Positions 28,716 to 48,657 of a stretch of 64,000 bases of DNA are shown here, piece by piece. Position 1 is the stretch's first letter, and each line of letters begins with the position of its first letter. A program made the translations under genes and the position numbers. This DNA is from Methanomassiliicoccales archaeon LGM-DZ1 (GTDB lineage Archaea; Thermoplasmatota; Thermoplasmata; Methanomassiliicoccales; Methanomethylophilaceae): assembly GCA_030168595.1 (NCBI GenBank), contig CP115556.1:1550001-1614000 (forward strand), in the 5' to 3' direction. The notes below the pieces were generated by a model. It saw nothing but the letters and a program-made list of their open reading frames with translations. It had not been told where the DNA came from and did no database searches.

Positions 28716-29011
28716 ACTCTTAGAAAACGATGTCTGACGGGGAGGTACCGGCCCCGGAGCATCCATGACTGTCCCTTCTGCTCCGGGGCCTCCTATCTCT
28801 CTCCCTTGGACGATGGGCCTGCACAGGCAGGTCCGCTCCCGGAACGGCCGCTCAGGAGGCGATCGGCACGTTCCGGGCCTGAGCAGTTTGCGCTTATGAG
28901 TATAGAATGATGCCGTCCGAAGGATTGATGAACCCTTCAGAGAGCCTGTCCGGTCCCGCCGGTCCCCTGCAGGGATCCAGGGCGGGCAGGCAGGCTCTTG
29001 ATGCTTTTTTT
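28716..29011 (+). ncRNA. Candidate structured RNA or regulatory intergenic element beside cobN1
   Basis: A 296-bp gene-free stretch unusually rich in perfect inverted repeats. They are a 12-bp stem GGCCCCGGAGCA (28750-28761) with TGCTCCGGGGCC (28779-28790), and a 9-bp stem CCCGGAACG (28838-28846) with CGTTCCGGG (28869-28877). A 7-bp stem GCTCAGG (28850-28856) with CCTGAGC (28878-28884) interlocks with the second. A long hairpin has outer arms AGAGCCTG (28941-28948) and CAGGCTCT (28991-28998), followed by seven T residues at 29005-29011. The last part looks like a plus-strand terminator. No plus-strand gene precedes it, so an RNA transcribed divergently from cobN1 is plausible. No known family recognised. 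Confidence 0.4.
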
Positions 29012-46696: not shown

Positions 46697-46799
46697 TGCC
46701 TGGCACATTAAGGGTCTAATCGGTTCCGGATGCTCAAGGCGAAATCAGAAAAGAGCGCTCAGACAGATGAGTATAGTGGAAAAGACCGCCCCATTCAAA

Positions 46800-48132
46800 A
46801 AGCGACCTGCTGATTCATAGTTGCAACAAAAAACCGCAGGCCGAGAGGAATATCGCCGACCTGAGATAAAGATTGGCGCCTCGGCAGGCCTCCGGGGAAG
46901 GTTGCGGCAGGGAGGCAAGGAAAGCTTGAGGATAGCGATCGGGATGGACCTGCACAAGAAGACCGCGGTATGCTGCGCGGTCCATGCGGGCCCGGGGAAG
47001 CCGAGCGAAGAAGAGGAGGAGTTCCTGAGGCGCTTCAACAGGGACCACGGCACGCAGCCGTCGGAGCCCGAGGACATAGCGCGGATCGCGGAGGCGCTCC
47101 GCGGGCATGAGGCGCATGTCCTCATCGAGAACTCCACGAAGACGCACGAGACCTACTGGGTCCTGACCAACCTCGGGATCGACACGGTCGTGGCGCAGGC
47201 CCAGGACCTCTACCGGATCACCAAGTCCGTGAAGAAGACCGACGCCAACGATGCGGCCGAGCTCGCGGGGTACATGCGGCGGAGGCTGAACGGCGAGCGC
47301 GAGTTCGCCGTCTGCAAGATGCCGTCCCCGGTCTGGATGGAACGGCGCGAGATATGCCGCGCGGTCCTCGCGGAGAAGAGGCACCTGGCGGACCTCAAGC
47401 GCCGGGCCAGGATGCACATGCTCCTCCACGGGATCAGGCTGAGCAAGGATTACTCCGACATCTTCTCGAAGAAGGCGATGAAGGAGATGTGGGACTCGAG
47501 GGACACCTGCCTGAGGCTCCTCGTGTCGGAGGCGAGGTCGATAAAGGCCCGCACCGACGAGGAGGCCAGGCTGATCCGGGCGACGTTCGGGCACATCACC
47601 GACTTCGATCTGGTGATGAGCATCCCGGGGTTCGGCGCGGTCTCGGCCGCGTACGCGGTCTCTATGATCATCGACGTGAAGCGCTTCGGGTCGTCGGCCC
47701 AGCTGGCGGCGTACTTCGGCCTGGTGCCGAAGGTGCGCGAATCGGCGGAGACCTCGCACCGGTGCGCGACCACGCACCGCGGCGACAGAGAGATGCGCAG
47801 GCTGCTGTGCCAGTCGGCGATCGTCCACGTCCGCACCGCCGAGGACTCGGTGGTCTCGGCCCTCTACAACAGGCTGAGGGCGAGGGGGGTCTCCCACCGG
47901 GAGGCCCAGGTGGCGGCCGCGCGCAAGCTGGTGACCGTGGTCTGGTCGGTGCTGAGGAACCGCAGGCCCTTCAGCACCGACAGGGAGCTCCTGGAACGCT
48001 CCGCCGAGATGGCGGAGGAAGCGGAGGGGGATCCGGCGGCGGACTGAACCCCTGATATGCGGGCGCCGAGCGCGGGCATCCCGGGGCCTTAATCGCCGAG
48101 CACCATTTGGCCGCCGCATCAGCGGCAGGCCG
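46800..48132 (+). mobile_element. IS110-family insertion element (ends not defined)
   Basis: An IS110-type transposase gene is flanked by non-coding ends of about 100-230 bp. IS110 elements usually lack inverted terminal repeats, and I see none, so the limits given are approximate. In this family a non-coding end encodes the bridge RNA that guides target and donor choice. Candidate places are the 46697-46925 leader and the hairpin-rich stretch after 48047. The right flank continues into a tandem 223-bp repeat and tRNA-Asp. Confidence 0.6.
46926..48047 (+). CDS. IS110-family DEDD transposase
   Basis: Transposase with an N-terminal RuvC-like DEDD domain and a C-terminal Transposase_20 domain. 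Acidic residues are visible in RIAIGMDLHKKTAVCC, VLIENSTKTHETYW and KKTDANDAAELAGY. The C-terminal part has SIPGFGAVSAAYAVSM and AAYFGLVPKVRESAE with the conserved serine-containing segment. I place the start at TTG 46926; an ATG at 46944 or an upstream frame from 46821 are alternatives. The 373-residue length is normal and the frame is intact, so the element may be active. Confidence 0.9.
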   Translation: MRIAIGMDLHKKTAVCCAVHAGPGKPSEEEEEFLRRFNRDHGTQPSEPEDIARIAEALRGHEAHVLIENSTKTHETYWVLTNLGIDTVVAQAQDLYRITKSVKKTDANDAAELAGYMRRRLNGEREFAVCKMPSPVWMERREICRAVLAEKRHLADLKRRARMHMLLHGIRLSKDYSDIFSKKAMKEMWDSRDTCLRLLVSEARSIKARTDEEARLIRATFGHITDFDLVMSIPGFGAVSAAYAVSMIIDVKRFGSSAQLAAYFGLVPKVRESAETSHRCATTHRGDREMRRLLCQSAIVHVRTAEDSVVSALYNRLRARGVSHREAQVAAARKLVTVVWSVLRNRRPFSTDRELLERSAEMAEEAEGDPAAD

Positions 48133-48355
48133 AAGCAAAAGATGGCGCAAAGCCGAGGGACAGCCGGATACGCGGTGAGGTCCTCCGTCCCGGAGGGGCG
48201 GATGGGCGTGAATAAGATGGCGGCCCGGCGGAGATCCCGCCCGCACGAGAGCTGAGGCACAGCACCTGCAGAAGGCGGTCGCACAGCGGAAGCTACGCAA
48301 AGTTTAACCAAAACGGGGCTGATAATGTGGTTGGCGGGCGCTGCCTGAATGGAAT
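48133..48355. repeat. 223-bp tandem repeat, copy 1
   Basis: First of two head-to-tail copies, starting AAGCAAAAGATGGCGC and ending GCCTGAATGGAAT. It differs from copy 2 by a single base (CCC versus TCC near 48236). It contains a hairpin CCTCCG-TCC-CGGAGG and several smaller ones. No protein is recognisable in either strand. It lies 85 bp after the IS110 transposase gene. Confidence 0.85.
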
Positions 48356-48578
48356 AAGCAAAAGATGGCGCAAAGCCGAGGGACAGCCGGATACGCGGTG
48401 AGGTCCTCCGTCCCGGAGGGGCGGATGGGCGTGAATAAGATGGCGGCCCGGCGGAGATTCCGCCCGCACGAGAGCTGAGGCACAGCACCTGCAGAAGGCG
48501 GTCGCACAGCGGAAGCTACGCAAAGTTTAACCAAAACGGGGCTGATAATGTGGTTGGCGGGCGCTGCCTGAATGGAAT
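48356..48578. repeat. 223-bp tandem repeat, copy 2, abutting tRNA-Asp
   Basis: Second copy, identical to copy 1 except for one base. It ends three bases from the 3' CCA of the tRNA-Asp gene. The near identity means a recent duplication or strong gene conversion. Confidence 0.85.
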
Positions 48579-48581
48579 AAT

Positions 48582-48657
48582 TGGCGTCCCGGATGGAATT
48601 CGAATCCATGTCGGGGCCTCGACAGGGCCCCATGATAGGCCACTACACTACCGGGAC
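48582..48657 (-). tRNA. tRNA-Asp (anticodon GTC) with encoded CCA
   Basis: Complete cloverleaf on the minus strand: acceptor GTCCCGG with CCGGGAC, anticodon stem GGGCC with GGCCC around loop CTGTCGA (anticodon GTC), T arm ATGGA-TTCGAAT-TCCAT, discriminator G and an encoded CCA at 48584-48582. D arm TAGTGTAGTGG matches archaeal tRNA-Asp. A TATA box TTAAATAG at about 48684-48691 sits 27-34 bp upstream. No intron. Confidence 0.95.

What the first reader, a model, noticed from the sequence alone, without database searches (positions are those of the whole stretch)
46697..48657. IS110 element beside a fresh 223-bp tandem repeat that abuts tRNA-Asp
An intact IS110 transposase gene is followed, 85 bp later, by two head-to-tail 223-bp copies differing at a single base, the second ending three bases from the tRNA-Asp CCA end. 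The unit is non-coding and hairpin-rich. IS110 elements carry bridge RNAs in a non-coding end, and duplication of an element end or target-linked array could create such repeats. Alternatively the repeat is an independent element using the tRNA 3' flank as landing site.
Basis: partly seen in the sequence, partly recalled or inferred. Interest (0 to 1): 0.6.

Follow-up and report, generated by a model that had tools for sequence, protein, structure and literature searches.

The report
Jumping gene with repeated tail end
The repeat beside the tRNA is an extra copy of the tail of a mobile DNA element that seems to find its landing sites with an RNA, and matching scars in two strains suggest the element's own enzyme made it by joining its end to sites inside itself.

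Summary
It is the right end (RE) of the IS110/IS1111-type element itself. All 7 full copies in this 1.77-Mb archaeal genome carry it. The window copy has it twice.

Comparison with a second strain gives the ends: a two-base core AA at both junctions and no target duplication. Empty sites never contain the repeat. Four of 10 insertion sites (3 of 7 here, 1 of 3 in strain 1R26) carry an extra RE piece, of 223, 44, 32 or 8 bp. Each joins the RE at core AA to a different internal AA of the same RE. Slippage would not repeatedly choose the exact element end. I infer recombination by the element's own RNA-guided transposase, through self-insertion or unequal exchange.

Four of 10 sites lie 12 bp or less from a tRNA 3' end, facing it (P about 1e-13). 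The 3' non-coding region carries words that track each element's own ends and targets, in a covarying hairpin: a predicted bridge/seekRNA.

Family known. The tRNA-flank targeting and end scars look undescribed in the open-access papers searched. The mechanism is not experimentally shown.

The parts
46782..46783 (+). left core dinucleotide AA
   Evidence: comparison with empty sites in the same-species genome G002
46784..48355 (+). IS110/IS1111-type element body (GACCGCC...GGAAT); 7 full copies in the genome
46791..46797 (+). left subterminal inverted repeat CCATTCA, 7 bp inside the core
46926..48047 (+). DEDD transposase / recombinase gene (TTG start inferred)
48048..48355 (+). 3' non-coding region and right end of the element
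   Evidence: shared by all copies
48111..48250 (+). candidate bridge/seekRNA (approximate extent)
   Evidence: alignment and covariation
48136..48141 (+). candidate target word CAA-AA-G in the RNA
   Evidence: own-target matching; word chosen by eye
48210..48216 (+). candidate donor word GAAT-AA-G in the RNA (RE end, core, LE start)
   Evidence: own-end matching
48133..48134 (+). internal AA pseudo-site to which the inner RE is joined
   Evidence: junction read directly
48346..48352 (+). right subterminal inverted repeat TGAATGG, 3 bp inside the core
48356..48357 (+). core AA at the inner right end (true end of the element)
48356..48578 (+). extra (outer) right-end copy, 223 bp, starting at core AA; one base differs from the inner copy
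48579..48580 (+). core AA joining the outer right end to the target's right flank
48582..48657 (-). tRNA-Asp (GTC), its 3' flank being the landing site
28724..28729 (+). empty AA target (CTTAGAA-AA-CGATG) that is occupied by the same IS in G002 (coordinates approximate)

Best explanation
A member of the IS110 family, IS1111-type, resident in a Methanomethylophilus-like archaeon. It inserts, without target duplication, at AA core dinucleotides in A-rich sites (T-runs on the other strand), often just behind the 3' end of tRNA genes with its right end facing the tRNA. A bridge/seekRNA encoded in its 3' non-coding region probably picks the sites. The 223-bp tandem is an extra right end. I propose that the recombinase occasionally treats AA sites inside its own right end as targets and joins RE-AA to AA-internal. 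Two routes give the observed product: (a) a second copy inserts into the right end of a resident copy, and homologous recombination between the two overlapping 5' parts then removes one of them; (b) unequal recombination between sister chromatids. Both leave LT-AA-[element]-AA-[partial right end]-AA-RT. Shown: the ends, the core, absence of the repeat from empty sites, four right-end stubs of different length all starting at AA, tRNA adjacency, and RNA words and hairpin that covary. Inferred: that the transposase made the stubs, the route, and that the RNA is made and guides.
For: Unit = RE of all 7 copies. Ends and AA core from 7 two-sided and 1 one-sided occupied/empty comparisons out of 10 sites. 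Right-end stubs at 4 of 10 sites: 223 bp (window), 44 bp (L010), 8 bp (L015), 32 bp (L029 of G002). In all four, inner and outer copies end exactly at GGAAT-AA and the stub starts at an internal AA. AA makes up 21 of 309 dinucleotides of the 3' region, so four of four by chance is about 2e-5, before counting that all are anchored at the exact element end. No stub in the empty sites. Published IS621 off-target insertions keep the core in 87% of cases, and deletions/inversions between insertion sites occur rarely (PMC11208160, passages). RE within 12 bp of a tRNA 3' end and facing it at 4 of 10 sites, P = 9.5e-14 with 43 tRNA genes. Donor word 65 of 66 letters against 53.8 permuted (P 3e-5); position-free scan P = 0.015; target word 44 of 50 against 29.7. 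Hairpin around the donor word: 13 double-sided changes against 5.4 shuffled, 0 of 500 shuffles, and a lower covariation score in every slid version.
Against: None of the 45 elements scanned from other species (46 loci) has a right-end tandem repeat, so the effect is confined to one element in two strains. The internal sites share little with natural left targets except AA; only the 44-bp one also has CAA before it. A 2-base identity at a join is also what microhomology repair gives. No nested or dimeric intermediate was found. The whole 3' region folds no better than shuffles (z = -0.24), while the 5' leader does (z = -2.22). Guide words were picked by eye before the aligned test. The genome has not been checked against reads.
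Confidence: 0.7

Rival explanations
1. Replication slippage or microhomology-mediated repair produced ordinary tandem duplications that happen to include the element's right end.
For: Joins show only 2 bp of shared sequence, typical for such repair; tandem duplications are common in genomes; a sibling copy in G002 has a 411-bp internal deletion with short homology not at AA.
Against: Four of four stubs end exactly at the element end and start at AA; a free process would put ends in the flank or inside the gene as well.
Confidence: 0.17
2. Imprecise excision: the transposase cut at an internal AA instead of the right end, left the right-end piece at the site, and a new copy later inserted again at the same left target.
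For: Gives the same final structure; the left target sequence stays intact for re-use.
Against: No right-end piece of 17 bp or more without an IS in this genome (9 exact hits, all in IS copies), and no stub-like match, apart from the known copies and two remnants, behind the 30 of 43 tRNA genes examined; published IS1111-type elements make circles without detectable rejoined donor sites (PMC11187229 section 7; PMC5001619 table).
Confidence: 0.1
3. The repeat is an independent element that uses the tRNA 3' flank as its landing site.
For: It abuts the tRNA exactly.
Against: It is the right end of every copy of the IS and is absent elsewhere in the genome.
Confidence: 0.01

Closest known systems
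IS1111 group of the IS110 family (ISEc11, IS4321/IS5075; seekRNA)
   Same: DEDD transposase, longer non-coding region downstream of the gene, subterminal inverted repeats, 7-bp extension on the left, no target duplication, RNA words for the target
   Different: Transposase 372-373 aa against the stated 330-350 aa; lands at A-rich sites next to tRNA 3' ends; right-end stubs not described in the passages read
IS110 group (IS621, bridge RNA)
   Same: Related recombinase by sequence (IS621 8wt6, E = 1.4e-7), dinucleotide core at both junctions, RNA with target and donor words
   Different: Candidate RNA lies 3' of the gene, core AA (AT and GA in relatives) rather than CT
MITE-like derivatives of IS1111 elements in Coxiella (PMC5896051, search listing only)
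   Same: Short pieces of element ends left in the genome
   Different: Here the pieces are directly attached to a full copy, end to end, at the core

Membership tests
IS110 family | DEDD_Tnp_IS110 and Transposase_20 domains | tested here: met
   PF02371 74.1 bits, PF01548 29.2 bits (cut-off 29); NF033542 162.8 bits, cut-off 140
IS110 family | Insertion without target duplication, dinucleotide core at both junctions | tested here: met
   7 two-sided and 1 one-sided occupied/empty comparisons of 10 sites; the window's own pair has flanks only 85% alike
IS110 family | Circular intermediate with rebuilt junction promoter | not testable with these tools
   needs reads or PCR
IS1111 group | Subterminal inverted repeats of 7-17 bp | tested here: met
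   7 bp in the window, 9 bp in L114 with the 7/3 spacing; 16 bp in L084 but with a shifted spacing; my script with that spacing rule found no clear pair in most other relatives
IS1111 group | Longer non-coding region downstream of the gene | tested here: met
   308 bp downstream against about 142 bp upstream (coordinates)
IS1111 group | C-terminal GL-P----S(T)G motif | tested here: inconclusive
   GLVPKVRESA: the final G is A in the window; my pattern found the motif in only 2 of 11 proteins, partly because the pattern was narrow
IS1111 group | Transposase 330-350 aa and place in the IS1111 branch of the tree | not tested
   length is 372-373 aa; no tree was built
bridge/seekRNA | RNA with words matching the element's own donor ends and target, in loops of a conserved fold | tested here: met
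   sequence evidence only, donor word inside the conserved hairpin; the loop around the target word was not resolved
bridge/seekRNA | RNA is transcribed and binds the transposase | not testable with these tools
   no RNA data

The most novel reading that the evidence does not exclude
RNA-guided IS110/IS1111 recombinases recurrently attack core-dinucleotide sites inside their own ends and so write 'end scars'. When the join lies upstream of the guide region, as in the window, the product is an element with two guide-RNA modules in tandem, a route by which a second guide could diverge and give the element a new target.
Probability: 0.3. Interest if true: 0.72.

Novelty: new variant of a known kind. 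Interest (0 to 1): 0.5.

Why it matters
Bridge RNAs are new and of interest for genome engineering; how their recombinases go wrong in nature is little documented. Two strains here hold occupied and empty versions of the same sites plus a graded set of core-anchored self-joins, a natural record of self-targeting. The lineage also shows how RNA-guided insertion sequences can settle behind tRNA genes, and how a guide-RNA module can be duplicated, a step needed for target switching.

Tried and rejected
Independent element at the tRNA: rejected. Element whose true end is the outer unit: rejected, because other copies have one unit or stubs of other lengths. Known RNA family: Rfam gave nothing above its gathering scores in the window; with a lax threshold only the tRNA was credible. 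Whole-region folding as evidence for the RNA: uninformative. Stubs in relatives: none in 46 loci; the 23-bp array in L097 lies beyond the element end and is unrelated. Solo stubs behind tRNA genes: none among the 30 of 43 tRNA flanks examined, apart from the known copies and remnants L016 and L017. Link between stubs and tRNA adjacency: 3 of 4 tRNA-adjacent sites against 1 of 6 others, Fisher P = 0.19, not significant. An order-wide search added no relatives outside the family: 18 of 147 genomes. My first guide-word test contained three left junctions and one RNA word that were not found in the sequences; it was corrected and rerun, and only one search is used for the guide words.

Full report
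What is there. The window is G000:C1:1550001-1614000 of a single-contig 1.77-Mb archaeal genome. A second genome of the same species, G002, is Candidatus Methanomethylophilus sp. 1R26: contig 1 of NZ_LOPS01 and G002 C1 have the same length and the same match. The transposase at 46926-48047 is an IS110-family protein; its nearest solved relatives by sequence are ISCro4 and IS621. The 223-bp units are as described, with one difference (C48236 / T48459), 85 bp after the stop and 3 bases before the CCA of tRNA-Asp.

The repeat is the element's right end. Searching the whole genome with the unit gave 8 places, and with the whole region 7 full copies of about 1.58 kb; every copy ends with one unit, and the window copy has a second one. 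Within the copies only a few bases differ. The inner window unit is identical to that of five other copies, the sixth (L014) differing slightly; the outer one carries a change not seen in the others.

Ends and core. Five insertions of this genome are empty in G002 and three insertions of G002 are empty here. They show LT-AA-GACCGCC...GGAAT-AA-RT, with AA present once in the empty site and at both junctions after insertion, and no target duplication. Both junctions could be compared at seven sites, only the right one at the eighth (tRNA-Glu in G002). For the window site the flanks are only 85% alike. Sites L011 and L012 gave no clean empty partner. Subterminal inverted repeats CCATTCA / TGAATGG lie 7 and 3 bp inside the cores, as in the IS1111 group (the 7-bp left extension is stated in PMC11187229, section 7, read; the 3-bp right one is recalled).

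More than one repeat. Reading all right junctions showed that the window is not alone. L010, next to tRNA-His, has a 44-bp extra right end; L015, next to tRNA-Gly, an 8-bp one; and in G002 the site corresponding to G000:831.5 kb has a 32-bp one (L029). In each case the inner right end is followed by AA and then by internal right-end sequence starting at AA (window sites 48133, 48312, 48324, 48348). The empty sites contain none of these pieces. So 4 of 10 sites carry a stub: 3 of 7 here and 1 of 3 in G002. A left-end counterpart may exist: remnant L016 has a degenerate left-end piece before a left end, again meeting at an A-run (read by eye).

Mechanism. A join that always uses the exact right end and the core dinucleotide points to the recombinase. 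AA makes up 21 of 309 dinucleotides of the 3' region, so four AA starts by chance are about 2e-5, without counting the anchoring at the end. Self-insertion into the right end followed by homologous recombination between the overlapping 5' parts gives the observed order directly, and so does unequal recombination between sisters; the data do not separate the two. Excision that leaves a stub is less likely, since IS1111-type elements make circles without detectable rejoined donor sites (PMC11187229 section 7; PMC5001619 table passage) and no solo stub was found. IS621 off-target insertions keep the core in 87% of cases, with rare deletions and inversions between insertion sites (PMC11208160 passages).

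Where it lands. Rfam's tRNA model finds 43 tRNA genes here. At 4 of 10 sites the right end faces a tRNA 3' end within 12 bp (Asp, His, Gly, Glu), and at two more within 165 bp; chance gives 9.5e-14 and 1.4e-14. Two remnants also sit behind tRNA genes. Among relatives, 6 of 45 loci scanned by ARAGORN have a tRNA 3' end facing the right end (5 of 27, 1 of 18), mostly the closer ones (sequences); L076 adds a tRNA-like sequence with a probable intron, by eye only. The seven other-species copies of one type in the complete genome G048 are not next to tRNA genes, so tRNA adjacency is not a rule of the whole lineage. Natural left targets are A-rich (GGAA, GGAA, TGAA, TGAA, AGAG, GAGA, CGAA, AATA, AGAA, AGAA before AA; read), that is, T-runs on the tRNA strand, perhaps terminators (inference). 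Stubs are not significantly tied to tRNA adjacency (Fisher P = 0.19).

The guide RNA. Eleven related elements from this family of archaea were compared. Their 3' regions hold a word equal to RE end + core + first LE base, following changes of the element itself: AAT-AT-G in L076, whose core is AT; AAG-AA-T in L078; AAT-GA in L105, whose core is GA. Own words match 65 of 66 letters against 53.8 in permutations (P 3e-5). A position-free scan, not biased by my choice of words, gives P = 0.015. A second word upstream matches the left target, 44 of 50 against 29.7 for the 10 elements with such a word. For most of these elements the ends were set from one copy by pattern, not from an empty site. The donor word sits in the loop of a covarying hairpin (11 pairs, 88% of cells paired, 13 double-sided changes against 5.4 shuffled, 0 of 500, alignment, fold); with 11 related sequences the shuffle count is not a probability. 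Against this, the 3' region as a whole folds no better than shuffles and the 5' leader does; the leader also has conserved stretches whose role I did not settle. The window's duplication starts 3 bases before the target word, so both copies contain both words, but the outer one lacks the hairpin just upstream.

Known and new. The element belongs to the IS110 family, most like the IS1111 group. Open questions are the C-terminal motif (final G replaced), the longer protein, and the absence of a tree. The relatives are confined to one family: 18 of 147 genomes of the order at E <= 1e-60. None of the 46 relative loci scanned (45 elements) has an end repeat. Paper searches (open-access library only, judged mostly from the listings) showed nothing on right-end stubs or tRNA 3'-flank targeting by this family; of the listed papers I read sections 6, 7, 9 and 13 and passages of PMC11187229, and passages of PMC11208160, PMC5001619 and PMC3718332.

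Noticed in passing
L016 (G000:C1:1419080-1419182): About 100 bp of the element's left end fused to a tRNA gene that probably has an intron, with a second, degenerate left-end piece of about 16 bp in front; possible left-end counterpart of the right-end stubs.
   Followed up: partly
L024 (G002 C13, tRNA-Glu site): A copy with an internal deletion of about 411 bp that removes the end of the transposase gene and the candidate guide RNA; its join is at short homology and not at AA.
   Followed up: partly
L089 (G009:C15): A related IS110 element has the 13-bp word TGACCGAAACTGA both at its left boundary and just after its right end; unresolved, could be a left-end or target stub.
   Followed up: partly
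L017 / L032 (G000:C1:1715722; G002:C11): A decayed piece of the element behind tRNA-Gly(GCC), present in both strains, so an older insertion.
   Followed up: partly
window 28724-28729: Empty AA site that carries a clean copy of the same IS in G002.
   Followed up: yes
L105, L106 (G048): A related element with core GA whose transposase reading frame contains an in-frame TGA in both copies; a few other relatives also show single stops.
   Followed up: no
L109 (G048): An insertion lying between two copies of an 84-bp flanking repeat.
   Followed up: no
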